From assembly GCF_009017415.1 (NCBI RefSeq), contig NC_092410.1, positions 3,100,001 through 3,164,000 on the forward strand: a stretch of 64,000 nt of DNA, read 5' to 3'. Below the pieces are notes generated by a model. That model made no database searches. It had not been told where the DNA came from and was given only the letters and a program-made list of their open reading frames with translations. Below are positions 18,941 to 39,819 of this stretch, piece by piece; position 1 is the first letter of the stretch, and the number at the start of each line of letters is the position of its first letter. The stretch is from Aspergillus flavus. Lineage: Eukaryota; Ascomycota; Eurotiomycetes; Eurotiales; Aspergillaceae. The position numbers and the translations under genes were made by a program.

Positions 18941-19554
18941 GTTTGGGTTAACTAAGCAACGTAGGACTCGAATTTGACGGTGGGGGTCTTTTCCTGGGTT
19001 TAGAAAAGAGCTAAAGAGGTAGAAAACAACCGAAAGACAATCGTGTATCTATGAGAACTGATCTCTCAGCCAGCCGTACATCCACAGGTTGGATGAGCTT
19101 CGTATACAGCACTAGTATGTACATACACTCTCATGTGGGGTGTCTTGATTCCGATTGGCCGGAACTTTTCCGGAATCAATAGGAGTGGAGGTGAAGTAAC
19201 AACTCTGTCCGAATGATAGTCACCGGCGCAGGTCCGGTTATACATATCAAATCCTCCAGCCGGAGCCGTGCCGGAGACAGGCTTCTGTTTGATTCCGTAG
19301 GCTTAGCCCTGCAAGGCACAAGTACTCCGTCGGTTCAATGGCTCATCATGGAAAATACGCGCTTACTATTAATTAGCGCACATATCGATAGTCCATCTAT
19401 GTCAATTTCACAGGGTCCTTGACAGATTAGCAAAGCCAAGCGTAGTACTGCGGGCTTTAAACAGCAAAGAAAGCGTCTTGCTACGTATCTACGTCCGTTG
19501 AGTCGATTGAGGGGATAGAAGTGTGATTGCTGATTAATCTATCGGTTGGCTGGC
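18941..19554. other. Upstream region of the MCT-like transporter
   Basis: 614 bp between the transporter start and the 3' end of the lactamase-fold gene. It contains one CCGTCGG element at 19327-19333. The short frame at 19213-19422 has no protein features. Confidence 0.5.
19327..19333 (+). promoter_or_regulatory. CCGTCGG element upstream of MCT-like transporter
   Basis: Everted CCG-T-CGG repeat, the kind of site bound by Zn2Cys6 dimers, 387 bp upstream of the transporter start. It is one of ten exact copies in upstream regions of this part of the window. Function is inferred only from recurrence. Confidence 0.35.
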
Positions 19555-20752
19555 CTACAGGTCCAACCTATAGACCTCGGCATGTGTTAGATGCAAGACC
19601 TTTGACGCCGTTTCCTTCTCGACTGCGGCCGTGGCAGCCAGGGTGTCGATTCTGTATGGTGGAATGCAGCTATGGAGAGTCAGCCTGGGGGTTATCTTAG
19701 CGTCTATGCTGCCATGTTACCTTTCATCATGCAAGCACCATATCACTTGAGAGGGGCTCCCGAGCCATTGTATCTCCTGTAATGCAAACTCAGCTGCGGA
19801 TCCATCGAAGGGTTTTCCATTGAGGTTTGCCCGGCCGGCGATTCCCAAAATGGCCACATCTGGTTTGGGTTTCAAATCTTTTAGGATACCCTCATAGCCG
19901 CCCAGATGGGCGCTCCAAAGCAACGCCTTGCCCTCGACGAGAAAGTTATACATCAGCTGCCCTCCGTCACAATGAGAGAATACGTTGCGTTTCCGATCAC
20001 TGACGTACTCAACAAACGACCGTTGCCCTTCGCTTTGCTGTTCCACTGGCATAAGCTCACCCAACCTCAGAAGCCCGTGTTTCATACCCAGCGTGATATC
20101 CAAGGTGCAGGTAAAGGGGGTTGCTGCGCCAGTATAGACGGTCCCGGTATCGATTATCTCCGGGTGACCCGATGGCATTAGGCAGTGCAGAGAAGGCCAG
20201 ACTTCTACAGACAATGCCGCGAGTTCATGCACGGGGAATACGGGGCCACCAGGCGGGCCCGGGGCTCTCAGGGCTACGTTGCCCTTGGCCTTATCTCTGA
20301 TTTCACGCGTAAAAAGAGGAATCCGCTCACCACCGGAGACGGGCAGCAGCAGCTCTTCAGGAACCCCGGCTTGTCTGAGGCAATTGATCGCTTCGCCGTT
20401 CGCTATTACAGTGGCGCCGGTGCTGATTGCAATTCGATCCGCTCCAGGAAGGCTGGTGGTGACGATAAGTGTATTGCGGATATTAATCTGCCTATGCTTG
20501 TGGCATCGGTGGAGATACCTACTGATCAAAATGTGCGTGCGATATGAAGATGTAGTCAGCATCTGTCACCTGGTCAACTGCCAGGTATACTGGCAGGACT
20601 GAAGGCCTATCTAGCCACGTATCTAGGAAGATCGTAACTCCTCTGATTCGGAGCCGAAACGTCGTCGCCCCTAATTTATTTTCCCAGTCAGCTAATGAAG
20701 AATACACCAGCAATTTCAACTGACCGAACCATTCAAGGGTTGTATGCTTCAT
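19555..20752 (-). CDS. Metallo-beta-lactamase-fold hydrolase
   Basis: Three exons, 20752-20523, 20452-19721 and 19669-19555 (introns 70 and 51 nt), give 358 residues. Splicing the first intron creates the metal motif HxHxDH (SHAHFDH), followed by LPGADRIA; without it the last His is lost, which supports the splice site. Further zinc ligands should be at SGHPE and SHCDGG. The ATG at 20752 is chosen because the preceding frame lacks family features. The fold hydrolyses lactones, lactams, thioesters or phosphoesters. A CCGTCGG element lies 207 bp upstream. With an amidase, a CYP505 and two transporters nearby, a lactam- or lactone-opening role is possible but unproven. Confidence 0.8.
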
Positions 20753-21521
20753 TGGGTACTGGTTCTTGATATGAGTTTCACTGCATATATAAGAGAGGAT
20801 GGAGACACCGGATTTCAGAAAGTGAACAACCTCGAGGATGGGATTTAGATGTAGAAGTATGGCATCTTCAGCGGCCCACCGCGAGTGTACGATGCTTACC
20901 TGGGGCTGGCTATGGTCGTATTCGCCCCACCGGCACGCTGGTATCTTCCCCCACCCGTGCCGACGGAAATCCCCAGCCGAAACCAACCGAGCCAAGCGAT
21001 TGCACTACTGAGACATAAGAGATTATGGAGCCGATTCATACTCCCGACTTATTGCATCGCTGCGGGACCCTGGTGGTAAGCGAAGTGCGAAGAATCAAAG
21101 CTGTCTAGCTTTGCTAGTCCATCTCATGAGGAGAGTCTCGACGATGCATCATCGGCATGGCAGTTGAAGTCTGAAGAAAGAACTATACAATAGTACAAAC
21201 ATATACCCTTTTCCACATCAGTATATGATAGAGCTGGAGGACTGCGAGGTAGATGATTGTTGTTCTTAATTCAAACTATCTGATAAACAGAGAAAGGCAT
21301 TATATGACTGCGTCAGGTGACTCATCAGGTGACTGACAGTAAATAAATATTCTTCTTGAGCTACGAGGTCTCGGCCACCACACAGAGCTTTACATCAGCA
21401 CTAGAATAATTCGCATTGGTTCTTTGCGGAGGTATTACTCCAAGAGAAAGCCAATATATACACATAATATTCTCTCAGTCCACTGTACCAGGTCACCAAC
21501 GGCAGTAGACCAGACTACAAG
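20753..21521. other. Upstream region of the lactamase-fold gene
   Basis: 769 bp between the lactamase-fold start and the CYP505 stop. It holds one CCGACGG element (20960-20966). A direct repeat of GTGACTCATCAGGTGACT type occurs around 21315-21335. The open frames here lack family features. Confidence 0.5.
20960..20966 (-). promoter_or_regulatory. CCGTCGG element upstream of lactamase-fold gene
   Basis: Reads CCGTCGG on the minus strand, in the same orientation as the gene and 207 bp upstream of its start. Same element as at 19327, 25220, 28164 and other positions. Confidence 0.35.
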
Positions 21522-24500: not shown

Positions 24501-25049
24501 GCTGTTATAAGGGTGCCCTACCATTTGAGACATAGTTGCTGCGCGATATCATGCATCTGTGGAAACATCTCACGGATTCGTAATGGACCAAACGCTGGCA
24601 CTAGCAGCCGATGGGCAAGCTCCCAGTTCTTTTCATGATCGTACGCAGTAAATAACCCATCATGTGTACCGGAGCGGAGTAGCTCGAGGCCAAAGGAGAC
24701 ATGCTTGTGGAATCGGGTTTCATCGCAGAGTTCAGAAAGCAGGGCCACGCTATTTATGACAATGGATGTCTCTCCCGCGAAGGTGAACTTAAAAATAGGG
24801 TCTTTGAACAGGGCCGAATGTTACCACTTCTGTGTTATGATCTACTTCTTGCACAGAGCACGCACAGTAGGTTTTCGCGATCTTCAGCGTGGACATGGTA
24901 CCATTGTCTAGATCGATGTCCAGGATATTCCCGAGGAATGGTAGACCTGGAACGCTCATTAGACTTTTCTCAATGAATGATAAGGATGCTCGCTAACCTT
25001 GAGGTCCTGGGATTGGACATATTTGCTTTTCGTTGTCATTCTGTCGCAT
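21522..25049 (-). CDS. Self-sufficient cytochrome P450-reductase fusion (CYP505, P450foxy/BM3 type)
   Basis: Seven exons (25049-24998, 24946-24866, 24801-24522, 24462-23604, 23538-23025, 22971-22406, 22346-21522) add up to 3177 nt, or 1058 residues, the usual CYP505 size. The P450 half begins with the proline-rich PIPGP hinge and LPFLGN. It has AGHETT in helix I, ETLR in helix K and the heme loop [10 protein letters not shown] with its Cys ligand. The reductase half has the FMN site [12 protein letters not shown], the GCGHHDW segment formed by splicing, RQYTISSSP for FAD, and [10 protein letters not shown] for NADPH. Relatives hydroxylate fatty acids near the omega end; others act in secondary metabolism. 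Three CCGTCGG elements lie 170-460 bp upstream. All introns are 51-65 nt and preserve frame. Confidence 0.9.
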
Positions 25050-26263
25050 CTTGAGAAGGCGGCGCATTTTAGTAACAGGATAGTTAGATCGCAGAACAGC
25101 GCCTGGACACAGGAGTCTTTCTCGAAGCTCACGCATCATTTAAGCAGTTCTTAAAGACATATGAAGCTCATCATGACATAGTGTGAGATCACGCGAATTG
25201 GACTTGACTTCGGAGCTCGCCGTCGGTCACTACTTTTGCTTTTCTATTTTATTTGAGGTAATGATCTGTAAACCTCCTTAGGTTCAAAGGAAGTGGCTAT
25301 GGAGGCCCTGGACAGGGGTTATGTGGAGCTTGACCCGGGCCAAGTGGAGAGCAGCGAGCGTCCATTAATCCCGTCAATAGTGGGGTTTAGAGTGGAGTCA
25401 AATGAAATAAAACTGCCGTCGGCCATTTTTCGATCAGAGATCGTCGTTTGGCGGAGCCAGCTGCAGTTGCCCCTAGCAAATTTAATATCCATTCCAAAAA
25501 AGCCGTCGGTGCTTCTTAAGTAAGCCTCGACTTCGTACCTCCCAACTAGCTCCTCCTGATCCTGTAGAGTGACCTAGAAGGGCCGATTCCGCCTTGTTTA
25601 AGCTGGGGTTCATGCATATACCGGAGTAAAGTTGGTGTAGATGAGAGGCATTCAATATGGACTTCATCTCCAGCTTCCCCAGACTTTGGTAACAAAGAAG
25701 GGGTTGATAAAGTCTTTACATATTCGATACTAGTTACTGACATTTGTTTCCTGAAAGATCCCTTGTCGGATCTCTCAGGAGTAAGAGAAACGCAGCAGTT
25801 TGGAATCCCACTCGAGCATTGAGTTATTAGTGAATCTTCAGGATGAAGCACAGAGGAATATAGACAATCGGCTAAAGTTCGGACATGAGATAGTATCAAA
25901 TGCGTCTATAACTGATATAGGCGGATGAACAGCAGCAAATACTTGGCTTGGGATGTGTTGTATCTAAAGTCCCCTGCAAGTAGGCCGTCATACAACAAAC
26001 CTCTTGAGACACATGAGATGAAAGCATACTCTTATGAGCCTATATCTATAAGTAATCTCTCGGAATCATCGACACATAGCTATCATATATGTGAGAACAT
26101 ACTCTTTTGAAGCAGACAGGGGAAGAGCTTCCACATATTGTGACAGTGCTGGTTTCTACTGGTAGTAAGGAAAATAGCAAATCTCATTCTAAAAAGCAGT
26201 TCATAGGGGTGATTTGCTCGAATACTTTGGATACTTTGAACTCGCTTCGAGGAAGTTCTCATA
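25050..26263. other. CYP505 promoter region, no gene seen
   Basis: 1.2 kb between the CYP505 start and the stop of the first FAD oxidase. It holds three CCGTCGG elements within 290 bp. Short frames on both strands (for example 25546-25899 minus) have no family features, and the part beyond 25900 is AT-rich. Confidence 0.55.
25220..25509 (+). promoter_or_regulatory. Three CCGTCGG elements upstream of CYP505
   Basis: Exact copies at 25220-25226, 25416-25422 and 25503-25509, all in the same orientation; two read GCCGTCGGT and one GCCGTCGGC. They lie 171-460 bp upstream of the CYP505 ATG. Clustering of three copies in 290 bp is the strongest local support for a functional operator. Confidence 0.5.
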
Positions 26264-27757
26264 CTACAAATCTCCCGAACCCAAATTTCTAGCAAAGGAC
26301 ATTGGAAACCACTCAGGCGGTGTCCACGATTTGGTTCCCTTCAGATAGCTCAGCATGGCATCAGTTGCCACCGTGGCACAGGCAAAGCACCTGCCCATGC
26401 CCTCGCCGTTGTGTCCTACCGACACGTATTCACCTGGGCTTCCTTTGGTCGGCCGCCCGACAATGCTAGCGCCATCTTTGGTAAATCCTTGGATTCCAGT
26501 CCAGTCATAGACAACGTCGCGCTTGAAATCAATATCCTCAAAGTGGTGCGGGAAAACCGTTTCAAGGAACTGAACCATCTCCCTTCTGTGCGGGGTATTC
26601 TCAGGGAGTGTAATATTGTCATTATAGTCACCGGTCACTTCGGCGGTGGCAAGACCGTATAGATAAGGTCCGTTATTTGGTCGTTGCAAGATCCAGTGCC
26701 AGAAATCCTGGTATCCGAATCCTCGCGATAGTTGGCAAGTATCTGGCGCGGTTATGTTTGGTTGGACGCCCAGCATGTGTGCTTTTCGGCCGTACACGCC
26801 GTCTTTACCACAAAGGGAAGGGACAAGATGGCTGGCGTAGCCATTTGTCGCATGGAATACGGCGCGAGCTTTGATCTCGCCGCGGTTTGTCGAGACAGTG
26901 TAGTGATACCTCTCTGCTGTAAAGTCGCTAACTACCGACGACGCCGGCGTATAGGCGTGGATAGTCAACGCAGGCATGCGCTTCAGAGCAGCCTTTAGCA
27001 GCACCCCGACAAGTTTTCGAGGATAAACAGTCCCAGATGCTTCGAGGTATGCTGCTCCATACTGGGCCTTGGATTCATTCATCGTGACTTTCTAGACTCG
27101 CACTGTGTCAGTGTCTATGGATATGGTAGCTGTAAAGGGAGGTGTTCTCACAGATAGAACGTCACTTGTCTCCTTTATCAAGTAACCCTCTGGCTCATGG
27201 CCGTGCTGTTTGGCCGATTCCAAATCAGCCACAAACTCTTCCTTTTCCTCGGCCGTCTCAAACACCACGATTGTCCCATTGAGCTGTAGGTCGACTTCAG
27301 CCACGGCTTCAAGTTCATTAATTGCTTCAACCATCATATTCCGGTTCTTCTGCCCAAACCTCTTGAGTTTCAAGGCTTCCTTGACGCCAACTTCCTCCGC
27401 TAGCTCCCGAAAATGATACACCTCCGGTCGTCCAATATGTCCTCCATTTCGCCCCGTAGCGCCCGTGCAGAGGCCCCGGGATTCAATCAAAGCCACACAG
27501 AGATCGGGTTGCGAGCGTGAGATTTGGTACGCCACCGTTGCACCGGTGATCCCAGATCCGATAATGACGACGTCGACTTCAGAAGGCAGCGATGTCCGCG
27601 CACATTCTTCTTCGAAGTCGAGGCGATGCTCACGAATCCAGTAACTCTTGGAGATAGCCGGGACCTCTGGGAACTCAGCTGGGTTGGGGGCGCGAGCATA
27701 GATTTGTTCGTTGTGTGTCTGGGGGGACCAGACACTGTCGGAGGGCCAGGTAGCCAT
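26264..27757 (-). CDS. PuuB-like FAD-dependent amine/amino-acid oxidase (DAO family), copy 1
   Basis: Two exons, 27757-27152 and 27091-26264 (60-nt intron), give 477 residues. After a leader of about 60 residues comes the ADP-binding strand VVIIGSGITGATVAY. The GATGRNGGH motif that follows is the mark of DadA/PuuB-type oxidases and their fungal relatives. The C-terminal part has DWTGIQGFTKDGAS and GHNGEGM, closing the FAD site. Expected reaction: oxidative deamination of an amine or amino acid to an aldehyde or keto acid, with hydrogen peroxide and ammonia or amine released. It is divergent from an aldehyde dehydrogenase across 567 bp holding two CCGTCGG elements, an arrangement that fits consecutive steps. 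A second copy lies at 39926-41488. Confidence 0.85.
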
Positions 27758-28324
27758 GGTAAAGTCAATGATAATTCAATCTTGATTTTCATCAACATCC
27801 TTGTCCTACGGTCTTCTTCTTAGGGAATTTAACGCAGCTTCAAACATTTCCCGATCGGTAGACTGGAGGCTGGCGTCCGCGGATTCCGGGGTGGAAGTTG
27901 TAATTTGTGGGGAAGATGGAGATTTGATACGGGATATGGAAATCACCGTCGGCTTCTTTTCAGCATCCCCCAGAAATAGACTACTAGTTGCTTCGAGCGG
28001 AGTATTACACCATCGTGGGATGAAACTTGGCTGAAGCAAGCCGAGGCTGTTACCTAAGGAAATCTATCTTCGAAAAGCATCTTCATCGTGCTCTCACTAT
28101 CATATCAATCTACCAAGCAGCACAAAATGAAGCCTTGTATACGTTTATCGTCTACGTAAATCGCCGTCGGTAGGTTCTTCCGCCTCTTAACTTGCCTCGG
28201 CTTCCAGATAGGTAGATGGATGTTTCCCATTCATTGTGCCTCAAGTCAATGATCAGCCCTTAAAGACATTGTGCTGGTAGCCTGTAGTTTGCTCCGGTCA
28301 TCAACCCTCATTGTAGCAACAACC
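27758..28324. other. Divergent promoter between FAD oxidase and aldehyde dehydrogenase
   Basis: 567 bp shared upstream region with CCGTCGG copies at 27946-27952 and 28164-28170. The small frames on both strands are not gene-like. Confidence 0.55.
27946..28170 (+). promoter_or_regulatory. Two CCGTCGG elements in a divergent promoter
   Basis: ACCGTCGGC (27945-27953) and GCCGTCGGT (28163-28171). The first is about 190 bp from the oxidase start, the second about 155 bp from the dehydrogenase start, so each gene has a copy at typical promoter distance. Confidence 0.5.
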
Positions 28325-29788
28325 ATGGCCAGTTTCATTACAGATGACGAGTTTCGCTCGCTTCACCAGAAGCTTCGCGCTGCCTTCACCGACAACCGAA
28401 CTCGAGACGTCCGATGGCGCAAGTGGCAGTTGAAACAGCTGTTTTGGCTACTTGACGAGAATGAAGACGCTCTTGTCAAAGCCATGGCGGACGACCTGCA
28501 CCGGCACGCCTTCGAGTCACTCTCCTACGACGTCAGCGATGTGAAGAATACCATCCTGACCATGCTCAAGAACGTGGATACCTGGTCTCAGGGCGCTCCG
28601 CCTCCCGAAGCAGGTCTCTTTTTCCGATATGTCGGCAAGGCCTGGATTCGAAAGGAGCCTAGGGGAGTTGTCCTCATCATCGGAGCTTGGAACTACCCTC
28701 TCTCAACACTACTCTCCGTGGCAGCCGCAGCCATTGCAGCAGGAAACAGCGTCATACTCAAACCGTCGGAAATCGCTAGACACACTGAGCTACTGCTGAG
28801 CGAATTAGTCCCGACGTACCTCGACTCATCGGCGATCGCACTCATCCGTGCGGATCCTGCGTCCATGGGCACCATTTTAGAGTACAAGTTCGATTTTATT
28901 TTCTATACCGGCAGCACGCGCGTCGGTCGCATCATCGCCGAAGCCGCTGCGAAGCACATCACCCCTACAGCTCTCGAGCTCGGCGGACAGGCTCCAGCAA
29001 TTGTCACCAAATCAGCAGATATCGAGGTTACCGCGAAGAGGCTGGTGGCTGCCAAACTGACGAATCTCGGCCAGATCTGTGTTTGTGTCAACCATGTCTA
29101 CGTGGATCCCGAAGTCCATGACTCGCTCGTCGCGCGTCTGATCTACTGGACCGAGCGGTTCTCCAAGGGTGACGGGTTGAATGGTCTTGCGCGGATGGTC
29201 GGTGAACGACAGTATGACCGACTCCATAATCTGCTCGAACACACCCAGGGCAAGAAGGTGTTTGAGGGGCCCCATTCCCGCAAGGAAAAACTCATCTTTC
29301 CAACAGTCGTCACAGACGTGAAGCTTGATGACTCGCTTCTTTCAGAAGAGCTATTTGGCCCCGTCTTGCCGGTCGTGAAAAAGACCGTCCCAGAAGTATT
29401 GGACATCCTGCGCGGCAGTCCATATCCACTGGGTCTGTATATTTTCTCGAATGATTCCACTGAGATTGACACCATCCTCAACTCCACCAACTCTGGCGGC
29501 GTAACTATCAACGACGTTGCTATCCATGCGGACGTCCCGTCTGCGCCTTTCGGTGGCGTCGGCGACTCCGGCTACGGCGCTTACCATGGAAAATGGGGAT
29601 TTGATACCTTTAGTCACAACCGCACTGTCGTCCGAGTGCCTGCCTGGATTGACCGCTTTGTACAGTGGCGATACCCGCCGTTCGATATTAAGAACCGGTC
29701 AGAGACTGATGCGCCTCGGCCTAGATTCAAGAAGGGGGAGACACTAGAGGATCAGGGGGGATCAGGGATGGGGTGCGTCGTGATGTAG
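28325..29788 (+). CDS. Aldehyde dehydrogenase, ALDH3 (fatty-aldehyde) type, with C-terminal CaaX box
   Basis: A single exon of 487 residues from the ATG at 28325 (ACCATGG context; the upstream ATG at 28271 is less likely). The cofactor part has IIGAWNYP and KPSE, then the FYTGSTRVGR turn, the catalytic Glu in ELGG, and the catalytic Cys in NLGQIC. The size and motif spacing match ALDH3/Hfd1-type enzymes, which oxidise medium and long aliphatic aldehydes. The last four residues are CVVM, a classical CaaX prenylation signal ending in Met (farnesyl type), preceded by a Gly/Ser linker, so membrane anchoring is likely. It probably oxidises the aldehyde made by the divergent FAD oxidase. Confidence 0.9.
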   Translation: MASFITDDEFRSLHQKLRAAFTDNRTRDVRWRKWQLKQLFWLLDENEDALVKAMADDLHRHAFESLSYDVSDVKNTILTMLKNVDTWSQGAPPPEAGLFFRYVGKAWIRKEPRGVVLIIGAWNYPLSTLLSVAAAAIAAGNSVILKPSEIARHTELLLSELVPTYLDSSAIALIRADPASMGTILEYKFDFIFYTGSTRVGRIIAEAAAKHITPTALELGGQAPAIVTKSADIEVTAKRLVAAKLTNLGQICVCVNHVYVDPEVHDSLVARLIYWTERFSKGDGLNGLARMVGERQYDRLHNLLEHTQGKKVFEGPHSRKEKLIFPTVVTDVKLDDSLLSEELFGPVLPVVKKTVPEVLDILRGSPYPLGLYIFSNDSTEIDTILNSTNSGGVTINDVAIHADVPSAPFGGVGDSGYGAYHGKWGFDTFSHNRTVVRVPAWIDRFVQWRYPPFDIKNRSETDAPRPRFKKGETLEDQGGSGMGCVVM

Positions 29789-29835
29789 TTCATAGTTCTT
29801 CAAGCATACGTTCTGCAATTTGATGTAAACTAAGG

Positions 29836-31567
29836 TCATGACATGTAAAACTCATCTCTTCCTAAGGCCTTGTCAATCGTGCGTAGTAGTCCCAGCACTT
29901 TCTCCTCCTCGAACCTCCTGCCCATAACCTGCAAGCACACCGGTCCATCTTTGTACGTCTCTGGAGCGTCTATGGAGCGGTTAGCATCGTATCAGAATAT
30001 GGTGGCAACCCGCTTGTTTGTAGGGTGACTCACATGTATCCCAATTCCGTTGGTCATAGTCTGACATGGGCTCGAAAGGGCTCTGTGGTTTGGCATCCAA
30101 GACAGAGTCTACTTGGGTAACGGGCACAGTGGCACAGGTCCATTCAAGTACATTAGAGATGGCCTCGTAGGTGAAATACTCCATCTTTCCATGAGGAGGA
30201 GCCACTGTACCGCCGGAGGGAAGAATGATGGCATCGACCGGCAGGCCCGTGGCGGTCTTCGATGCAGTGGCCTGCCAAATATCTATATACTTCTGACGAA
30301 GCAACTTTATCTTGACTGCGGCAGATTTATATTGTGCTACAGACAGGGTGGTCATTGCTTCGAGAGGAGTAATCTCTGCAATGAGAGGCTCATCCAACAC
30401 GCTGAGTATCTTCCGGACTTCCTCGCCGCCGGTTGCAAAGAAAATGGGAAATGCAGCTTTCATAAGCTCCCGCCCATCCCAGGGGTCGATATCAATGACT
30501 TGATGGCCCGCGCGTATAAGAGCCTCCTTCATCTCTCTCATGCCCCGTAGAATGGGAGGGTTAGGAAGCACGACTGAATCGTGCGGCATAAATGCATAGC
30601 AAAGTGGGTGCGTCTTTCCCAGTCCCTCCTGGTATTCAGCCTCCCTCCATGGAATGCGAGCGCTGCTGAAGTCCCACTCCCACGGGCGCAGACCTAACAG
30701 CGTTCGCGTGTAAACTTCCAATCCGTCGACGCTGCGAGACATGGGGCCTGCTACACCTTGGATTATCATATTGCCATCTGAGTTCTCGGCCGAATGTTCG
30801 GGAAAGCGATTTGGAGAAGGGCAAAGCCCGTAAATCCCATTGAAGTTGGCCGGAGTGCGTATTGATCCTGCAATGTCGCTACCGATGCCTAGGGGACTGC
30901 CCCCTAGAGCGATCAGCGATCCTTCACCACCACTTGAACCACCAGCGGTTAGTCCTGTGTTGTAAGGGGTCGATGTGCGACCAAACACGAAGTTCACACA
31001 CTCGCCTGACATCAATGTCTGGGGGACATTGGTTTTGCAATAAAACACGGCGCCAGCCTCGTGAAGCTTTGTGACTAGTCGGTCTTCGTAGTCAGGGATC
31101 TGACCAACTGTGGCTACAAACCCCAGTGTTGTTTCTTGTCCTGCGACGTTCATCACATCTTTCAAACTGATTGGGAGGCCGTGGAGAGGGCCGACGGTCC
31201 TTCCAGTAGTCTTCAAGAACTCATCCAGATTCCGAGCCCGGGCCACCGCGCGTTCGAAAAAGATCTCACTCAGGGGGTTGGTGAGGTAGTGGGCAATTGT
31301 TACTCGGGCGATGAAGGCTCGAAGGACAGCTTCGGCGGACCAGTGGCTACTCGAGAGGTTGGACAGCAGTTGACTGGGAGTTGACTCTGTGATCCGCAGT
31401 TGCTCCTCGGTCAGGAGACCGCAGCGAAGAGGAACATCTTTCACGTATGTGTCATCGGGCTTCAGATCAGGGACTGGCCCGGGCTGCCATTTGCGAATTT
31501 CAGCGTCTCGGGAAGCCCGCTTCTGGGCAGCGCGTTGTTCCCAGAGGGGTGGTTCGACCGACGACAT
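29836..31567 (-). CDS. Amidase (acetamidase/AmdS type)
   Basis: Two exons, 31567-30034 and 29969-29836 (64-nt intron), give 555 residues, close to fungal acetamidases. The amidase-signature catalytic triad is visible: Lys in PISLKDVM, Ser in GGSSGGEG, and Ser in GIGSDIAGSIR. It hydrolyses carboxamides to acid and ammonia in the cytosol; the fungal group accepts small aliphatic or aromatic amides. The stop is 47 bp from that of the convergent aldehyde dehydrogenase. Its start is 277 bp from that of a divergent Zn2Cys6 regulator, whose shared promoter holds a CCGCCGG variant of the recurring element. In a catabolic cluster it would release an amine or ammonia from an N-acyl intermediate. Confidence 0.9.
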
Positions 31568-31711
31568 GTTGTAAATCGATACGAGGTGACGGGTAAAGAG
31601 GTGGTGAGAAGTAGATACTTAAAGGCCAACTTTTCTTCTCATTTTTAGCAGAAGGGGCTGCTACATGGTGGACGTAGCTCTGCTGCTATGTGCCGGTATG
31701 GTGGGAATATG

Positions 31712-31718
31712 CCGCCGG
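31712..31718 (+). promoter_or_regulatory. CCGCCGG variant in amidase/regulator divergent promoter
   Basis: CCG-C-CGG keeps the one-base spacing of the CCGTCGG element but with another centre base. It lies in the 277-bp divergent promoter, 127 bp from the regulator start. A single variant copy is weak evidence on its own. Confidence 0.25.
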
Positions 31719-31844
31719 CGACTTTTGATACTTTTAGGGTACAAGTGGGGCACCCTTGGAACTACTTCGGTTCTCCGATACGTGGCAGACATTCCTTTCT
31801 CCTACATTTTTCACCTTCCTGCCCAGCGCGACCACCTCATCACG

Positions 31845-33919
31845 ATGTCGTCTAGGGCTTGCGATCGCTGCTGGGCCTTGGTAGTCCACTCCACTCCCTC
31901 TTTCGGGGAGGACTTGGTGCTAATGCGATACACGTGTAGAAGACGCAATGCGATTCCCAGAGCCCATGCGCCCGTTGTCGCCGCTTGGGGCTCCCCTGCC
32001 TCACTGAGCGTCCTGTGCGGGCAAAGGGACGCCCGAGGAAATCAGTATCCTCCCGGCAGGATAGGGCTGTCCGCGAGCCGTCCGTAGAGCCTGAATCTCA
32101 ATCTAGTGGCCAGGAGATTAGATCGTCTGTGTCCACTGCGGATGTCTCTAGCATCCCACTAGATCCAAGTCTCATTGACAGCCTTCTTCAGCGGCTCCTA
32201 TCATCTTCAAGGAAACTGGGCATTTTCGGGCTGCTGCCAGATAGTCTGCATGCCGACACCGAGGCCCGCGCCAACTTCTCTGTGCGCCAGATTTTGAACG
32301 CAGAATTACAAAACGCACTACTGGCAATAGCTCTCGATCTATATTGCTATCGACTTCCGGAGACTGTCGCAGGTTCTCTTGCTGTGAGCCGAGACCACCT
32401 CCAGATGAGGGCACTCGCCGACACCCCATGTCTGACATGGAAAAGCCATGAGTTGCAACTAGGGAACGCTCTTCTCTTGCTTCTCTTCAGCTACACGTGG
32501 TGCTTGAACTCGGAGTTTGCTGATATTGCCGTCCGCTGGCTTTCGCTCTCTCGCATCATACACGAAGACATCTCGAAATCGTCCATCCAAGATGACGACT
32601 GGAACGAATTGACTCGACGGTGAGTTCCGCCCAGAAACAGACCTCGAAACCAATAGGCTCATTGGCGACAGCACTGAGATGTCTCTATATATCCAAGACG
32701 CGTACGTTAGGGACCATCTTTTCTTCCTCGGACTATCGCTGATAAATAAGGGATCACCAGCATATTGGCGTTGCTGCACAATCAGAGGAAACCGAGCTGC
32801 CCATTCCAAGTCTGCACCAAATCACAGGTTGCTGACAATATATGGCATGCTTCCTCGCCCTTGAATTCAGTCCCAACAGAGCTGTGGACACTCGAAGCGA
32901 GTAGTTATTTTGTCATGATGCATCCCCTAGTGAAGTAGCTAGCTATAGCCCCCTCATCCTTTGCACATTTGGATTCTGGTCATTAATGGTTCCTTAGCTG
33001 CATGCGAGCGGTTATTGAAGCACCCTCATTTGGTAGTCGAGCGTGGACTACTATCAGAAACGACCTATGCAATTATTTTTTTCGATTCCCCCCAGCACTG
33101 CTGCGGTTCGAGGACTTGACGTACGCCTATGAAGCAGAGGCGATGATCTGGATGCACGGGCTGTTTATTATCTTATGTACGAATCCACGTTCAACCCATC
33201 CGGTGGAAGACTAATACATGGTCTAGATGGGACTCGAGACTTGGTTGATCTGATTATGAACCCTGTTTATCATGAGGCCGACCGTTTCAGCTACCTCCTT
33301 GAACACTCCCTCCTCCTCGGAGATGTATGTCCTATTGTGCTGGAGTCTAATCTACAAGCTAACTCCTCAGGTTCTGCCTACCGTTCTCTCTCTCGATCCA
33401 TACTTGGAAAGCCTCTCGCCTGCTACTATAATCTTCCTCCTCCAGTCCACCACCATCCATGCAATAGCTCTTCGTCAATTCTTCTCCGACAACAGCAACC
33501 ATGCCCTCCTCGAGAATGGTGTTCCTGCGAAGCTCGTCCGATCAAGCGACCACCATCACAGTCTGTTATCCGCCATCGAACTCCATTGCAAGCGGTATGA
33601 TATACCAATCATCGGGGAGATTCGCACACTGCTCTCGACTTGTCTGTCACGCGCTGCATTCCGCAACACGGATGCAAGAATCATATCCACGCAGCAGCTG
33701 ATGCACTACCGGTGGTGCAGCACGGGGACTGGAATTATTCACCTGCAAAGAGATGAGGCTGTTGCGGCATGGCAGTACCCGGTCAGTCCGGGAGAGGAGC
33801 TCTGGCAGCAGCCATCAGACAATAGGGACGAGCTTCAGCCCCTGATTGTGGACTTGTGTGCGCCGAACACGCGGCTCTGCCGCAATGGGTACTTCGACTT
33901 GAGTATCCTGATCCGGTGA
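31845..33919 (+). CDS. Zn2Cys6 transcription factor
   Basis: Eight exons fit one frame: 31845-31880, 31940-32619, 32672-32701, 32751-32827, 32880-32934, 32998-33176, 33227-33324 and 33371-33919 (1704 nt, 567 residues). The zinc cluster is split by intron 1 and is complete only after splicing: CDRC from exon 1, then CX6CX2CX6C from exon 2 (CX2CX6CX6CX2CX6C overall), followed by an AT-hook-like KGRPRKS. The C-terminal two-thirds resembles the fungal-specific factor domain of the XlnR/AraR type (YGTRDLVDLIM, then the helix-rich end). The middle exons, including a 30-nt one, are the least certain; an acceptor at 32656 is an alternative. Divergent from the amidase, it is a good candidate for the local regulator. 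Confidence 0.75.
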
Positions 33920-33939
33920 CTAAACATCTCCCGTCCAGA

Positions 33940-35277
33940 TCAGAACAGCGGAACAGAAAGGTTCTTCTCAGCAGCCAGAATTTGCAGGCTGAGCTCCCTC
34001 GAAGGCTGGGGAGACGCTAACATGGCATCGGACATGGAAAACCGCTGCCACAGCTCTTTGAGTAGGTCGAGGACCTGGGTGAGGTGCGCGATGCGGAAGT
34101 AACGGTGCAAGCGCTCAAACATACTCACAAGCTCCGCTTGCAGCGCATAGTCATTGAAGATCTCATTCCCGATCACGGTCATCGGCCAAATCATGGCGTT
34201 CGCGATCGTAATTCCCTTTTTTTCGGCCAGTGTGATCAGTGACTGAAGTCCGACAATCATCTCGCGAACATATCTTTGATTAACTCGCTGTCGACGAGGA
34301 GCTACAGGGATGTAAATGCTGGTTGTAAACCCGCCTCGAGTGAGGTAAATATGTGCTGCCTTTCGAATAGTTTCCCAGGCAGTTGTCAATGCCAGAGACA
34401 GTGTGCTCGATATGTGGGGTGGCACCATTGGAGGCTCCCATCCGGCAATGATCGCATGCATTCGCGATGTCCAGTAGGATTCCGTCTGCTGTGGGGAGCC
34501 ATACTCAGCTAGCCGTTGTTCTTGAACTGGATGTATTCCTTGATAGATATCATTTATATATGCCGCGACAGAATCGTCGATCTGGCCTTCAATTACAGCA
34601 GAAATAAGAGCGACCACGGTCACCAATGTCTCCGGGTAACCGGATGAAATTTCAAACGTTGTAAACTCCGTAGGCTCGTCTATCGTTGAGGTGCTTCTTC
34701 TCCAAGGACAGATTCCCCAAGCCAGCCATTTGTGTTGACTAGCCTCGGACCTGTTCAGAGCAAAGGCCGAGATGTCAAGATGCGCCGCGACTGTCTGGAG
34801 ATATCGCACCAACGGCACAGATCGAAAACCCTCAATGTCCAGTGATTCCACGAGGGCAATCATTCCAGTCACATGCACCGACCAGTTGTGGACTTGCTCG
34901 GGCAATCCAAACAGCGTCAGCAGGAGACATGAAGCTAACACCTCCATGACATCACCGTCGTTGACTGGATTTTCCGACTGGAGCCGAGACAAAATTGATT
35001 GCACCTTGGTGATTGTCTCCTGGTAGCGGTCGAGCGCATTCCTCTTGGAGCCTTCTGTGCGTGCTGCGCTACCATCTCCAGATGAAACGCGAAGGCGAGC
35101 GGAATACGCAAGTAACGCAGAGAGGATGGACGGATGCTCGGAGGCGAGGGGGAGTATCTCATCCAACAGCGGTCGCGAGCATTCTCCAATGGCGACAATC
35201 GACCGCTGGCAGCTGTGGATCAAGAACCGGATATCCTGGTTCTCGCGCCCGTTAAGCTTCAGACGCCAGTTTGGCAT
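33940..35277 (-). CDS. Fungal transcription-factor-domain protein lacking a zinc cluster
   Basis: A single exon of 445 residues from the ATG at 35277 (an upstream ATG at 35364 would give 474). The helical pattern (HPSILSALLAYSARLR, QSENPVNDGDVMEVLASCLLLT, WSVHVTGM) is typical of the Fungal_trans_2 group usually fused to a Zn2Cys6 domain. No cysteine cluster is present, and I see none in the 300 bp upstream in any frame. I prefer 35277 because a CCGTCGG element at 35341 would then be promoter rather than coding. It converges on the other regulator, with only 20 bp between stops, and is divergent from the cupin gene. It could be a co-regulator, an inhibitor or a truncated factor. Confidence 0.65.
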   Translation of the reverse strand: MPNWRLKLNGRENQDIRFLIHSCQRSIVAIGECSRPLLDEILPLASEHPSILSALLAYSARLRVSSGDGSAARTEGSKRNALDRYQETITKVQSILSRLQSENPVNDGDVMEVLASCLLLTLFGLPEQVHNWSVHVTGMIALVESLDIEGFRSVPLVRYLQTVAAHLDISAFALNRSEASQHKWLAWGICPWRRSTSTIDEPTEFTTFEISSGYPETLVTVVALISAVIEGQIDDSVAAYINDIYQGIHPVQEQRLAEYGSPQQTESYWTSRMHAIIAGWEPPMVPPHISSTLSLALTTAWETIRKAAHIYLTRGGFTTSIYIPVAPRRQRVNQRYVREMIVGLQSLITLAEKKGITIANAMIWPMTVIGNEIFNDYALQAELVSMFERLHRYFRIAHLTQVLDLLKELWQRFSMSDAMLASPQPSRELSLQILAAEKNLSVPLF

Positions 35278-35340
35278 TGGTATTTTTTTCTTACAGACTG
35301 AGGGGCGAGGTATGGGCTGTGGCATGGGTGAAATAAATGC

Positions 35341-35347
35341 CCGTCGG
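35341..35347 (+). promoter_or_regulatory. CCGTCGG element between regulator 2 and cupin
   Basis: CCCGTCGGT at 35340-35348, 64 bp upstream of the preferred start of the minus-strand regulator and about 230 bp upstream of the cupin start. If translation starts at 35364 instead, the element would fall in coding sequence. Confidence 0.35.
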
Positions 35348-35576
35348 TGAAATATCAGCTTCATCCTGGGGGGGAAGCCGGGTAGGAAGCCTGGATGGAT
35401 GCCTTAGGTACCTAGGCAGCGGACTAACTCCGACTGGTCTATTTGGCCGTTCCAATCGGATGCTCGCATTAACGCCGAAGAGACTATATAGATTACTCGT
35501 ATAGAGAGAGATAAGAGACGCTGCTCCATGCTGCCATTCAGACTCAATACTCAGAGCGCCAAAAAATATTTCCATC

Positions 35577-36049
35577 ATGCCGAACATTGTCGTCATTAAC
35601 GGGGCCGACAAAGTCACCCCTACAACCGAAGAAGGCGCGGGCGCCTTTACGGATCTCGCGGGTTCCAAGTATGCCCTTTTCTCCGAACCAATCTCCTGAG
35701 ATGCGATAGCTGAACGTGGTAGTGCCTCCGCCGAACATCCCATCGTAGCTGGAGTTTGGGACCTGGTCGATCTCGATGAGCCTACCCCAGCGTGGGAAGC
35801 CGAATGGGATGAGGTGAAGTACTTGATAGCCGGTAACAGGACACAAAAACCATGAGTTCGGGAAAATACTTATACAGGACAGGAGATTTAACACTAAAGA
35901 ATGAGGAAACCGGCGAGGTCAGCAACCTGAAGGCCGGTGGCATGCTTTGGATTCCCAAGGGTGCGAAGATGTCAATAATCAAGTCAAGGGGTGTGCGCAC
36001 CATTTACGTTGAGCAGCAATATCGGAGGGCGTTGCATACCAGTTCTTAG
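35577..36049 (+). pseudogene. EutQ-like cupin protein with an in-frame TGA or an unusual intron
   Basis: Two stretches, 35577-35832 and 35883-36049, joined by a 50-nt GTAACA..ACAG intron, form a 140-codon frame. The second half has cupin strands typical of EutQ-like proteins (DLTLKNEETGE, AGGMLWIPKGAKM, GVRTIYVEQQYR). Codon 41 (35697-35699) is TGA; the residues on both sides read as normal coding sequence. Either this is a nonsense mutation or sequencing error, or an intron at 35662-35709 (GTTCCA donor, GATAG acceptor, 48 nt) removes it in frame. The donor of that intron is poor. EutQ cupins accompany amine catabolism in bacteria; the fungal role is unknown. It lies between a divergent regulator and an aminotransferase. 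Confidence 0.6.
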
Positions 36050-36260
36050 AAACCACAGGCGAATTAAGATGTATTTAGAGACTGGTAGTAGAGAACAAGT
36101 GACGAAAATGGATTTTCAGTGTAACGAATGCATTATTAGCAAATAAGAACCATCTGGACCGACTGTGGGGGGTCGCACCAGAGTATATAATTCAGCAAGT
36201 CCCTCTCACATTGTTGGTTTTATTCGCTTCCTCTACATTTATATCTCGCTTGGAATCACC

Positions 36261-37583
36261 ATGGCTGAATCAATCACTACCTTGAAGCAACAACTCATCG
36301 ACGAATTTATTCAGGCCAATCCCAAATCTAAAGCAGCTTTTGATCGTGCTCGCAATGCTCTGCCAGCTGGAAATACCCGATCTGTTCTCTGGTCGGAGCC
36401 CTTTCCTCTCACCCTCCAGTCGGGCAACGGCGCACACGTTACCTCGGTAGATGGGCAGGAATATCTAGATTTTGTATCCGATTTCACGGCGGGGCTCTAT
36501 GGGCACTCGCATCCGGTCATTAAGCAGGCTGTGAAGGATGCTCTTGCCACTGGATTCAGTTTGGGTGGCGTCGTCGAGAAGGAGGCCCAACTGGGAGAGA
36601 TCTTGCAGACTCGGTTCAAGAGTATTGAACGGGTTCGTTTCTGCAACTCCGGGACCGAGGCCAATACATTTGCCCTAGCTACCGCGAAGGCCTTTACTGG
36701 CCGAAACAAAGTATGAGAGACTGTCTGTTTGTCTGCTGGAGAAACCACTAACCCACATGACTGTGAGCAGATCTTGGTCTTCGACAGTGGTTATCATGGA
36801 GGAACTATCAGTTTCCATGGCACAACGCCCAACCCGATGAATCTACCGCACGAATTTGTCGTCGGTGCCTTTAATGACATTGAGCGAACACAGTCCTTGG
36901 TTGACAATAGTTTGGCGGCCATCCTGATCGAGCCAATGCAAATGGCAGGAGGCGTCCGACCGGCTTCAATCGAGTTTCTACGGTTCCTACGTGAGTCCGC
37001 CACCAAAGTCGGCGCGGTTCTTATCTTTGACGAAGTGGTGACCTCTCGCCTGCACTACCACGGCCTGCAGGGCGCCCGGGAAGTCTATCCTGATATGACG
37101 ACGCTGGGCAAGTACCTCGGCGGTGGATTCCCCTTTGGTGCCTTTGGCGGACGCGCCGACATCATGGAGCAGTTTAACCCAATCGCTCATGGCAGAAGTG
37201 TATTGCATCATAGCGGTACCTTCAACAACAATATCTTTACCATGACGGCAGCCGTAGCGGCGGCTGAGCTGGTGACAGAGCAGTCACTAGCGGAGCTCAA
37301 CAAACTGGGCGACGATCTGCGCGCGACAGGCAACAGTATTGTGCAGCAAGCGGGGCTCAAGGATATTGTCTTCGTAGGCTACGGGAGTACAGTGGGCATG
37401 GGCTTCCTGGGCGATCGTGGTCAAGTCCTCCGTGAGGTGTTCTACTTCACACTCGTAAAGCAAGGAATTCTGATGGGACGACGAGGATTCCTGTGTTTGA
37501 ATCTGGCACATACAAAGGAGCACATTGACCGGTTTTTGGATGTAGTGAAGGTATTTGCCGAGCAGCATAGGGCAGACGTATAG
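36261..37583 (+). CDS. Class-III aminotransferase (glutamate-1-semialdehyde aminomutase-like)
   Basis: Two exons, 36261-36710 and 36771-37583 (60-nt intron), give 420 residues, the usual size for the GSA-aminomutase branch of class-III aminotransferases. Visible features are NSGTEAN for phosphate binding, the strand IFDEVVTSR with the Asp that holds the pyridine nitrogen, and the Schiff-base Lys in TTLGKYLGGG. Fungi make heme precursor by the ALA synthase route, so a true GSA aminomutase role is unlikely. Transfer of an amino group from an omega-amino acid or an amine is more plausible. The ATG at 36261 follows CACC. It lies 288 bp upstream of a permease gene on the same strand. Confidence 0.88.
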
Positions 37584-37618
37584 CGATATCACGGCGACAG
37601 CCAATCAGAAAAAAAGCA

Positions 37619-37625
37619 CCGACGG
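37619..37625 (-). promoter_or_regulatory. CCGTCGG element upstream of permease
   Basis: ACCGACGGC at 37618-37626, the reverse complement of GCCGTCGGT, 247 bp upstream of the permease start and 35 bp after the aminotransferase stop. Confidence 0.4.
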
Positions 37626-37871
37626 CGAGATGTACGTATCTGGTAGTTTTACTTTAAGCTCTGTCAACTCTCCACTCCTCTGACTGGGCTCAAGCCCAGC
37701 CCCAGGTTTTAGTGTTAGACTCATTCGCCCCGCACGTTTCAAGATAAGAGAATCGTTTAGTGTGATATCGATGTTGTGTCTATTAGACCTATTTAGCTGA
37801 CTTGACTGGCCACTCGCTTGCAACTCCGGCCACCAAATCCGCGTTTCCCTTCTATCAACCAAGCTAGTACC

Positions 37872-39680
37872 ATGTCTTTCACGAATGAGTCACGGGGAGA
37901 CAAATCCCCGGTTGACAATAAATTGCTACAGCCCCTTGAACCGGTGTCGACTTATGGAACCGTGGTTGAGAATGGCACCATCGAGGAGCTCGGCTATGTG
38001 GCCGTCTACCGACGAGTCTTTCGTTCTCTAGGAAATATGTGCATGGTGGTCGCTCTGACGACGTATGCCCTCTTGGGCAATTGCACTTTTAGAGCCATGT
38101 TGACTTTTCTCTCTGTAGTCCATTGAGTGCGATCTTAGTCACCGCATTTTATCAAATATCATATGGTGGCTACTGGGGACTTTCCTGGTGAGGACAGATT
38201 CGTCCAACTTGTGCAAAACTCAAGGCAACACTGACATTTTTAGGGGCTGGATTATCCCCAATGTCATACTGATTCCTGAAGTGCTTGCCATCGCAGAGCT
38301 CGCCTCGTCCATGCCGGTCAATGGCTCCTTCTACTGGTGGGCTGGTGCACTTGCGCCGCCGGGGTGGTCGCACGCTATCTCATTCGTCACTGGGTGGCTG
38401 AACGTGTTCACCATGTTCGCCTCGACAGCTAGTTTTGCCTACGCTGTGGCCTCATCATTATCCTATGCGGTGACCATCGCTGCCCCTTCGATGGCCTGGA
38501 CCAACGCTCAGATCATGTGCCTTTCCCTCGCTGTGATTGTCGTCTGGAGTGGTGTGATGACCTTGAAATTGGAGCGCATTGCCTCTGTGTATATTGCCAT
38601 GGGTAACTTTCGCCTTCTTTGTCATTGCGTGGGCATTGACTGACAAGTTAACAGCAATTCTAGTCTTAATTCAGACTCTTGTTTTCATATTCGGCCTGCC
38701 AATCAGCCACAAAGTCCAGAATCGCCCATTTGCGTCTGCAAGGACTGTCTTTGGAGAGTACACCAACTTCTTTGACTGGGGTCTCGGCGTGTCCGTTCCA
38801 TATTCTTGGTTCTGTACTCTCTGGGTTAACTCGGCGTGGATGGTCCCTGTCTATGTCGCCGAGGAGACGCACGATGCTAGCAGGGAGATCCCCAAGTCCC
38901 TGTGGTACACCTTTTCCGTCACCGCAGTAATTGGCATGGTCATCTGTTTGGTTTCCGCATTCTGCATCAATGACATTGAGGCCGCCGCAGCAGATGAGAG
39001 GCATGTCTTTGAAGATTCGCTTAAAGGCGTTCATGCTAACCCCCTCTAGTGGATACCCCTTGATGAATCTCATTTACGAACACTGGGGTCACGCCCCGAC
39101 CTCTGCCTACTTCCTGTTCATCACCCCGGTCGGATTCATCGGGGGTAGCGGAACCCTCCTTACCTATGCCAGCCAGATCGCAGCCTTCGCTCGAGATGGG
39201 GGGTTTCCCTGGCATGAACGCGTGGCCTACGTGCATCCCCGGCTCAACCTCCCCATCTATTCGCTCGCCATCCTAGGAATCGGCACCTTTCTAGTCCTCA
39301 TTATCGCCCTCTCCCCGGCAGCCAGCTCCATCATCTACTCTCTGTCCGTAGTGACTAGTCTCGTAACCTTTATTGTACCCATATTCTTCCGTATTTTCGC
39401 CGGCGACCGATGGGTGCCGGGCCCCTGGAATCTCGGCCGCTGGAGTATCCCCATTCACATTGCGGCCGTAGTCACGCAGGTGTATCTGATTATCATGGAG
39501 TGCTTCCCCACAGCACGAGCGTGGACTGTGGAAACCTTTAATTATAACTTTGCACTGACCCTCGGGGCAATGTTGATTTCCTGCGGGTTATACTGCAGTG
39601 TGGGGAGGAGGAATTTCAAGGGACTGGATCTGGAGGCTTTGGAGGCGTGGAGGAGGCATCACGCTGCGTATGCGGAGTAA
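37872..39680 (+). CDS. APC-family amino-acid/GABA/polyamine permease
   Basis: Five exons (37872-38062, 38119-38187, 38244-38602, 38655-39000, 39050-39680) give 531 residues. About twelve hydrophobic segments are visible, with a short charged N-terminus. Features of the fungal GABA/choline permease branch include AELASSMPVNGSFYWWAGAL and the EETHDASREIPKS loop. The fourth intron (39001-39049) begins with GC, not GT: AG|GCATGT..CTAG with a perfect GCTAAC branch site. Only this splice keeps the frame (AADES joined to GYPLMN). It is probably the uptake carrier for the amine or amino acid used by the flanking oxidases and aminotransferase. Confidence 0.88.
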
Positions 39681-39812
39681 TATTGGATTCTTCCGGCCCG
39701 AATAGCTTTGTTTGATGTCTATCAATCATGCCAATGTCCTTTGTACAGAGTCTCAGGAACCCGCGGGCAGCGAAGGAGGCCTTGCGGAAGCTTTCAAAAG
39801 AGGCTTTAGTCT

Positions 39813-39819
39813 CCGTCGG
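39813..39819 (+). promoter_or_regulatory. CCGTCGG element upstream of second FAD oxidase
   Basis: TCCGTCGGG at 39812-39820, 107 bp upstream of the second PuuB-like oxidase start. A TATAATATAAATA-like TATA box follows at about 39861-39873. Confidence 0.45.

What the first reader, a model, noticed from the sequence alone, without database searches (positions are those of the whole stretch)
19327..39819. CCG-T-CGG everted repeat marks a candidate regulon of about seven promoters
Exact CCGTCGG (either strand) occurs upstream of genes at 19327, 20960, 25220, 25416, 25503, 27946, 28164, 35341, 37619 and 39813; a CCGCCGG variant is at 31712. These regions total about 4.5 kb, so about 0.5 copy is expected for a random 7-mer with equal base use. 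I saw none in the intergenic regions left of 18.9 kb or right of 41.5 kb. Six of the ten fit (G/A)CCGTCGG(T/C). An everted CGG pair with one base between is a plausible Zn2Cys6 dimer site. It ties the MCT transporter, lactamase-fold enzyme and CYP505 to the amine-type cluster.
Basis: partly seen in the sequence, partly recalled or inferred. Interest (0 to 1): 0.8.

Follow-up and report, generated by a model that had tools for sequence, protein, structure and literature searches.

The report
Shared promoter motif of fungal cluster
A short mirror-like DNA sequence repeats in front of most genes of a fungal gene cluster that looks built to break down amides and amines, and it very probably is the docking site of a switch protein, perhaps the one encoded in the middle of that cluster; this is an ordinary kind of gene control, but the sites can now be tested directly.

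Summary
All ten CCGTCGG copies and CCGCCGG are where stated. In the cluster's intergenic DNA, CCGTCGG is the most enriched of 3,426 seven-mers (9 seen, 0.42 expected), and among everted CGG pairs only the one-base spacer stands out (11 copies; at most 3 at other spacers 0-20).

Correction: the sites before the transporter (19327) and the lactamase-fold gene (20960) have the core but not the flanks, so their membership is unproven. CYP505 fits well.

Best explanation: the Zn2Cys6 protein at 31845-33919 binds these sites as a dimer and switches on an amide/amine-use cluster, itself included. The second regulator (33940-35277) has no zinc cluster and probably acts through the first. The same heptamer with AT-rich flanks is published for Trichoderma FUR1 (PMC12370193), so the element type is not new, and a FUR1 orthologue is the main rival binder. 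Binding, expression and conservation of the sites could not be tested.

The parts
25220..25226 (+). CCGTCGG, 156 bp upstream of the CYP505-like gene's ATG
   Evidence: leave-one-out: 5 windows in 300 kb score as well or better
25416..25422 (+). CCGTCGG with full A/T flanks on both sides, 352 bp upstream of CYP505
   Evidence: (no window in 300 kb as good)
25503..25509 (+). CCGTCGG with strong A/T flanks, 439 bp upstream of CYP505
   Evidence: (no window in 300 kb as good)
27946..27952 (+). CCGTCGG in the divergent FAD oxidoreductase 1 / aldehyde dehydrogenase promoter (192 and 376 bp from the ATGs)
   Evidence: (no window in 300 kb as good)
28164..28170 (+). CCGTCGG in the same divergent promoter (410 and 158 bp from the ATGs)
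   Evidence: (no window in 300 kb as good)
31712..31718 (+). CCGCCGG variant with A/T flanks in the divergent amidase / Zn2Cys6 regulator promoter (148 and 130 bp from the ATGs)
   Evidence: (2 windows in 300 kb as good)
35341..35347 (+). CCGTCGG between regulator 2 (67 bp from its ATG) and the cupin-like ORF (233 bp)
   Evidence: (5 windows in 300 kb as good)
37619..37625 (-). CCGTCGG 250 bp upstream of the amino-acid permease
   Evidence: (no window in 300 kb as good)
39813..39819 (+). CCGTCGG about 110 bp upstream of FAD oxidoreductase 2 (probable ATG 39926, not verified)
   Evidence: (5 windows in 300 kb as good)
19327..19333 (+). CCGTCGG core 390 bp upstream of the MFS transporter; flanks do not fit (weak)
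   Evidence: (101 windows in 300 kb as good)
20960..20966 (-). CCGTCGG core 211 bp upstream of the lactamase-fold gene; flanks do not fit (weak)
   Evidence: (908 windows in 300 kb as good)
17549..18940 (-). MFS transporter; best NCBIfam models are lactate/monocarboxylate transporters, below their curated cut-offs
19717..20752 (-). metallo-beta-lactamase-fold hydrolase (one intron inferred; HAHFDH motif)
26264..27757 (-). FAD-dependent oxidoreductase 1 (DAO family)
28325..29788 (+). aldehyde dehydrogenase, class-3 / fatty-aldehyde type
29981..31567 (-). amidase, best solved match a fatty acid amide hydrolase (6kvr)
31845..33919 (+). Zn2Cys6 regulator: CX2CX6CX5CX2CX6C followed by a GRPRK stretch (AT-hook-like, recalled); only its first intron was modelled
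33940..35277 (-). regulator 2: Fungal_trans_2 domain, no zinc cluster here or in the 5 of 7 database hits scanned
36261..37583 (+). class-III aminotransferase, best solved matches beta-phenylalanine aminotransferase and beta-transaminases; no CCGNCGG in the short gap before it
37872..39680 (+). amino-acid permease
39926..41488 (+). FAD-dependent oxidoreductase 2 (DAO family)

Best explanation
The repeats are binding sites of a cluster-specific Zn2Cys6 activator, most likely the one encoded at 31845-33919. Shown by sequence: an everted pair of CGG triplets with exactly one base between them (T/A in ten of eleven), with A-rich sequence on the left and T-rich on the right a few bases beyond each triplet in most copies, sits 67-440 bp upstream of start codons in six intergenic regions from CYP505 to FAD oxidoreductase 2. 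Inferred: the activator binds as a homodimer whose two zinc clusters read the outward-facing triplets, and its linker (which carries an AT-hook-like stretch) touches the A/T flanks. When an amide or amine substrate is present it turns on uptake (permease), amide hydrolysis (FAAH-like amidase), oxidation and transamination of the amine part (two FAD oxidoreductases, beta-transaminase-like enzyme) and oxidation of the resulting aldehyde/acyl chain (class-3 ALDH, CYP505), and raises its own level through the site it shares with the amidase. The second regulator lacks a zinc cluster and so probably acts through a partner, as sensor or brake. Membership of the MFS transporter and lactamase-fold gene is open.
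For: Top 7-mer of 3,426 and top two dyads of 28,843 in the cluster's intergenic DNA. Among everted pairs, 11 copies at spacer 1 and at most 3 at any other spacer 0-20 (10 before the start of regulator 2 was corrected). Symmetric flanks: T at half-site positions 8 and 9 in 28 of 40 for the ten claimed sites against 31 of 128 for 32 sampled sites; rank test over positions 7-10, ten against 39 others, P 2.7e-4. Extended palindrome 33 times genome-wide with 4 here; no other 20.5 kb stretch has more than 2. Leave-one-out: 9 of 11 sites matched or beaten by at most 5 windows in 300 kb. Of the two cluster regulators only one has a zinc cluster. Amidase and regulator 2 relatives lie on contigs of equal length in 4 of the 5 other Aspergillus species named, with A. 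brasiliensis locus tags 006678 and 006680. Published precedent: FUR1 binds CCGACGG with AT-rich flanks by EMSA (PMC12370193).
Against: No binding, expression or cross-species site data. The gap before the aminotransferase (36050-36260) has no CCGNCGG. Two of the eleven sites fail the flank test. The flank patterns were read off these same sites, so the genome counts of the extended patterns are partly circular, and genome-wide they are not much commoner than their backward controls (33 against 22; 24 against 26). Three coding places in the window also score well on the matrix: 36859 (15.1), 31191 (13.7), 10811 (13.2), above the claimed 19327 (11.4). Another Zn2Cys6 protein, such as an orthologue of FUR1, could be the binder. 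Forward-strand groups of up to 6 copies in 20.5 kb occur in the listed first 1.83 Mb of contig 1 (9 here). Direct CGG-N8-CGG pairs also number 7 in the same DNA.
Confidence: 0.65

Rival explanations
1. The sites are real but are read by a regulator encoded elsewhere, for example the Aspergillus orthologue of FUR1, whose published site is the same heptamer.
For: FUR1 of T. reesei binds CCGACGG flanked by AT-rich DNA, and the paper says orthologues occur in Eurotiomycetes and names one in A. niger (PMC12370193). 29 of the 33 extended sites lie outside this cluster, so the element may serve other genes.
Against: The genes here do not look like L-fucose or D-arabinose genes. A zinc-cluster regulator lies in the middle of the site array with a site in its own promoter. 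The concentration here (4 of 33 in 20.5 kb) would be unusual for a dispersed regulon.
Confidence: 0.2
2. Only the core from CYP505 to FAD oxidoreductase 2 is one regulon; the two left-hand CCGTCGG cores (transporter, lactamase) are chance or decayed sites, perhaps of a separately acquired arm. (This is about the border and can hold together with the best explanation.)
For: Leave-one-out failure of 19327 and 20960. The lactamase's best named full-length relatives are in Pyricularia, Pestalotiopsis, Thozetella, Sarocladium, Curvularia and Fusarium at 69-75%; none of the four core-bearing Aspergilli is among the 120 of 311 listed.
Against: Two cores in about 1.5 kb of intergenic DNA by chance is unlikely (about 0.12 expected at the sampled noncoding rate), and both lie 200-400 bp upstream of an ATG. 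The lactamase listing is capped, shows other Aspergilli (56-68%), and holds the window's own protein only as an unnamed 99% fragment, so absence there is weak.
Confidence: 0.5
3. Chance or compositional clustering of a GC-rich heptamer.
For: CCGTCGG is not rare in the genome (3,861 copies), and local groups of 5-6 on one strand in 20.5 kb exist elsewhere.
Against: Those counts include coding DNA; here the excess is intergenic (9 against 0.42; 8 against 0.29 with one mask), specific to spacer 1 and flank-symmetric.
Confidence: 0.03
4. The cluster makes a secondary metabolite together with the neighbouring NRPS (43138-55017) and the motif is that cluster's element.
For: The near (3') end of the NRPS gene lies 1.65 kb beyond the last cluster gene.
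Against: The two CCGNCGG copies right of 41.5 kb (43673, 59392) are in open frames, so the NRPS promoter side has none; the enzymes resemble catabolic ones.
Confidence: 0.08

Closest known systems
FUR1 of Trichoderma reesei and its site CCGACGG (PMC12370193; passages and section 11 read)
   Same: Identical heptamer (reverse complement CCGTCGG), AT-rich flanks, upstream of catabolic genes, Zn2Cys6 binder shown by EMSA with the DNA-binding domain.
   Different: FUR1 is an 876-aa XYR1 relative serving L-fucose and glycan-degrading genes; here the sites are concentrated in one cluster of amide/amine enzymes. Homology of the cluster regulator to FUR1 was not tested.
LeuB/Leu3 site CCG-N4-CGG (PMC6221358; passages read)
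   Same: Everted CGG pair bound by an Aspergillus Zn2Cys6 protein.
   Different: Spacer 4, not 1; regulon of branched-chain amino acid, nitrogen and iron genes.
AmdR/IntA control of acetamide, omega-amino acid and lactam use in A. nidulans (PMC8016842; passages read)
   Same: One specific activator for acetamidase, GABA permease and GABA transaminase genes (its Zn2Cys6 type is recalled).
   Different: Serves amdS, gatA, gabA, lamA and lamB; its site is not given in the passages seen; no homology was tested.
QutA/QutR, GaaR/GaaX, TanR/TanX activator-repressor modules (PMC10512348; passages read)
   Same: A Zn2Cys6 activator gene next to a second regulator gene of another kind.
   Different: Those partners are AROM-derived repressors; regulator 2 here is a Fungal_trans_2 protein.

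Membership tests
Zn2Cys6 everted-repeat binding element | Two outward-facing CGG triplets at fixed spacing | tested here: met
   Everted spacer 1: 11 in cluster intergenic DNA; other everted spacers 0-20 at most 3
Zn2Cys6 everted-repeat binding element | Symmetric preference beyond the triplets | tested here: met
   T at half positions 8/9 in 28 of 40 against 31 of 128 elsewhere; fails for 19327 and 20960
Zn2Cys6 everted-repeat binding element | Bound by a Zn2Cys6 protein | not testable with these tools
   A Zn2Cys6 gene lies in the cluster; no binding data
FUR1-type element (CCGACGG, AT-rich flanks) | Same heptamer and AT-rich flanks | tested here: met
   against PMC12370193
FUR1-type element (CCGACGG, AT-rich flanks) | Regulator orthologous to FUR1 | not tested
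   FUR1's sequence was not obtained; Zn_clus was the only Pfam domain found in the pieces of the 31845 regulator scanned
LeuB element CCG-N4-CGG | Spacer of 4 | tested here: not met
   0 everted copies at spacer 4 in the cluster intergenic DNA
Single-cluster regulon | Sites concentrated in the cluster against the genome | tested here: met
   4 of 33 extended and 3 of 24 half-extended sites in 20.5 kb; elsewhere at most 2 and 1
Single-cluster regulon | Sites conserved in orthologous clusters | not testable with these tools
Single-cluster regulon | Every cluster gene has a site | tested here: not met
   No CCGNCGG in the gap before the aminotransferase, 36050-36260

The most novel reading that the evidence does not exclude
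A two-protein switch: a zinc-cluster activator that reads CCG-N-CGG in A/T-rich context, paired with a conserved Fungal_trans_2 protein that has lost (or never had) its DNA-binding domain and serves as its substrate sensor. The pair controls an Aspergillus pathway for fatty amides or beta-amino acyl compounds that I did not find described (one search), and its element has begun to capture a separately acquired lactamase/transporter arm.
Probability: 0.2. Interest if true: 0.55.

Novelty: new member of a known kind. Interest (0 to 1): 0.35.

Why it matters
It gives a concrete, ranked set of binding sites and a leading candidate binder for an Aspergillus flavus-type cluster that I did not find described (only), draws the cluster's limits from promoters, and shows that the element published for FUR1 in Trichoderma marks a quite different set of genes here. 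The zinc-cluster-free partner regulator, apparently kept beside the amidase in at least four other species, is a testable case of a fungal regulator acting without its own DNA-binding domain.

Tried and rejected
Rejected: chance or composition (shuffles and genome counts); a LeuB-type element (spacer 4 absent); an NRPS cluster element. Tried without result: looking for a wider regulon. CGGAATC, second of the 7-mers, was dropped: 6 in the cluster's intergenic DNA, but 13 in the whole window, others outside it. Solved-structure searches with pieces of the two FAD oxidoreductases gave nothing. A review of Aspergillus cluster regulators has no word beginning with CCG (PMC8395729, term search only). 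Spellings such as CCGNCGG found no paper; CCGTCGG or CCGACGG as a whole word found three, of which two were looked into by term. The paper searches gave listings only, apart from the papers named above and one review on AcuK/AcuM (PMC12719309, passages).
Full report
What was checked. The window is G000:C6:3100001-3164000 of a 37.74 Mb, eight-contig fungal genome. Its regulator 2 is 99% identical to an Aspergillus flavus protein, so the organism is probably A. flavus or a very close relative. Two further copies in the range lie in coding sequence (28763 in the aldehyde dehydrogenase, 31191 in the amidase). One copy left of 18.9 kb (17386) is in a non-coding gap, but between two convergent gene ends.

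More than chance. The genome holds 3,861 copies in 37.74 Mb; the same word read backwards has 4,803, so the heptamer is not generally favoured. The 20.5 kb stretch holds 12 against 2.1 expected, P 2.2e-6; over about 1,840 such stretches that is roughly 0.004 by chance. Among the 100 places listed for the first 1.83 Mb of contig 1, the densest 20.5 kb has 6 forward-strand copies against 9 here. In the intergenic DNA of the cluster, without choosing a word beforehand, CCGTCGG ranks first of 3,426 seven-mers (9 seen in 4,739 bp, 8 in 100.7 kb of sampled noncoding DNA, P 8e-10), and the dyads CCG-N2-GGC and CCG-N-CGG rank first and second of 28,843. The sample is 300 kb: 100 kb beside the window on contig 6 and 200 kb on seven other contigs; noncoding means outside open frames of 100 codons or more, which is an approximation. 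With that same mask on the cluster, 8 copies lie in 3,665 bp against 0.29 expected. Among everted pairs only the one-base spacer stands out: 11 copies, and at most 3 at any other spacer 0-20; inverted pairs reach 4 and direct pairs 7, the latter at spacer 8.

Flanks. At positions 8 and 9, T is found in 28 of 40 half-site letters of the ten claimed sites against 31 of 128 in 32 sampled sites; the rank test over positions 7-10, ten claimed against 39 others (32 sampled, 7 in the window), gives P 2.7e-4. The palindrome AAn4CCGnCGGn4TT occurs 33 times in the genome (backward control 22); four (starting at 25410, 27940, 28158, 31706) are in this cluster, and no other 20.5 kb stretch has more than two. 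CCGTCGGn3TTTT occurs 24 times (backward control 26), three of them here and elsewhere never two together. These two patterns were read off the cluster's own sites, so they are partly circular; the leave-one-out test is less so. There, 25416, 25503, 27946, 28164 and 37619 are matched by no window in 300 kb, 31712 by two, and 25220, 35341 and 39813 by five each; 19327 is matched or beaten by 101 and 20960 by 908. So nine of eleven sites stand and the two leftmost do not. The matrix also gives fair scores to three coding places in the window (36859, 31191, 10811), so a score alone does not make a site.

Where the sites sit. Distances to start codons are 67-440 bp. Six intergenic regions carry well-supported sites: CYP505 (three), FAD oxidoreductase 1/ALDH (two, divergent), amidase/Zn2Cys6 regulator (one, divergent), regulator 2/cupin-like ORF (one), permease (one), FAD oxidoreductase 2 (one, about 110 bp from a probable ATG at 39926). 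Whether 35341 is upstream or coding hung on the start of regulator 2; the 445-aa A. flavus protein starts at the codon at 35277, so the site is upstream. The aminotransferase has no CCGNCGG in the gap before it.

What the cluster may do. The amidase is closest to a fatty acid amide hydrolase among solved structures, the aminotransferase to beta-phenylalanine and other beta-transaminases, the ALDH to class-3/fatty aldehyde dehydrogenases, and the P450 to fused BM3-type enzymes. Two FAD oxidoreductases and an amino-acid permease complete it. A breakdown route for a fatty amide, amine or beta-amino acid fits; the substrate is inference.

Who binds. The protein at 31845 has a complete Zn2Cys6 pattern once its first intron is spliced, followed by an AT-hook-like GRPRK stretch (the AT-hook label is recalled). 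Its later introns were not modelled. Regulator 2 has a Fungal_trans_2 domain but no zinc cluster: none in the three reverse frames of 33.9-36.3 kb, and none in the five of seven database hits scanned, the A. flavus protein and four relatives at 59-64% identity, whose N-termini begin at nearly the same place. In A. brasiliensis, A. costaricaensis, A. heterothallicus and A. indologenus the relatives of regulator 2 and of the amidase are on contigs of equal length, and in A. brasiliensis their tags are 006680 and 006678. A. caelatus, the fifth other named species, has a partial regulator 2 and no amidase listed under its name. So the two genes seem linked in four other species, and the tag between them may be the zinc-cluster gene; this is read from contig lengths and tags, not from DNA, and the amidase family itself is far wider (461 hits at 1e-100, 120 listed). 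The lactamase-fold protein has another spread: its best named full-length relatives are in Pyricularia, Pestalotiopsis, Fusarium and other non-Aspergilli at 69-75%, other Aspergilli follow at 56-68%, and none of those four species is among the 120 of 311 listed. That fits the weak site before it but is weak evidence, since the window's own protein appears there only as an unnamed 99% fragment.

Known precedent. The same heptamer with AT-rich flanks is the published site of FUR1, a Zn2Cys6 regulator of L-fucose use in Trichoderma reesei, shown by EMSA (PMC12370193, passages and section 11 read; also a row in a table of PMC12941744, one passage). That makes a Zn2Cys6 element much safer and the element type not new. 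It also supplies the main rival, an orthologue of FUR1 as binder. LeuB uses spacer 4 (PMC6221358, passages), absent here. Neighbouring activator/partner gene pairs are known (QutA/QutR and others; PMC10512348, passages), but with AROM-derived partners.

Verdict. It is a new member of a known kind of regulatory element; binding, expression and conservation of the sites remain to be tested.

Noticed in passing
33940-35277: Regulator 2 is a Fungal_trans_2 protein with no zinc cluster, and the five database hits scanned lack it too; a DNA-binding-free regulator next to a zinc-cluster gene.
   Followed up: partly
19717-20752: Lactamase-fold protein whose nearest named full-length relatives are in Pyricularia, Pestalotiopsis and Fusarium rather than in the Aspergilli that share the cluster core; possibly a separate origin.
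   Followed up: partly
35577-36049: Small cupin-like ORF (EutQ-like by eye, recalled) between regulator 2 and the aminotransferase, with an in-frame TGA or an unmodelled intron.
   Followed up: no
27092-27094: In-frame TAG inside FAD oxidoreductase 1, possibly within a short intron; not resolved.
   Followed up: no
43138-55017: Large multi-module NRPS (condensation, AMP-binding, carrier, thioesterase domains and a weak methyltransferase match); its only CCGNCGG (43673) is coding.
   Followed up: no
cluster intergenic regions (19147, 19171, 19291, 25585, 26061, 27882): CGGAATC is the second most enriched 7-mer (6 against 0.33 expected), but 7 more copies lie elsewhere in the window.
   Followed up: partly
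cluster intergenic regions: Direct CGG-N8-CGG pairs number 7, more than at any other direct spacing 0-20; not tested further.
   Followed up: no
G000 C1:4350003, C2:2031013, C2:3887226; pair C3:3766681 and 3774899: Sites elsewhere in the genome that match both extended patterns, or lie 8 kb apart; candidate further targets whose surroundings could not be read.
   Followed up: no
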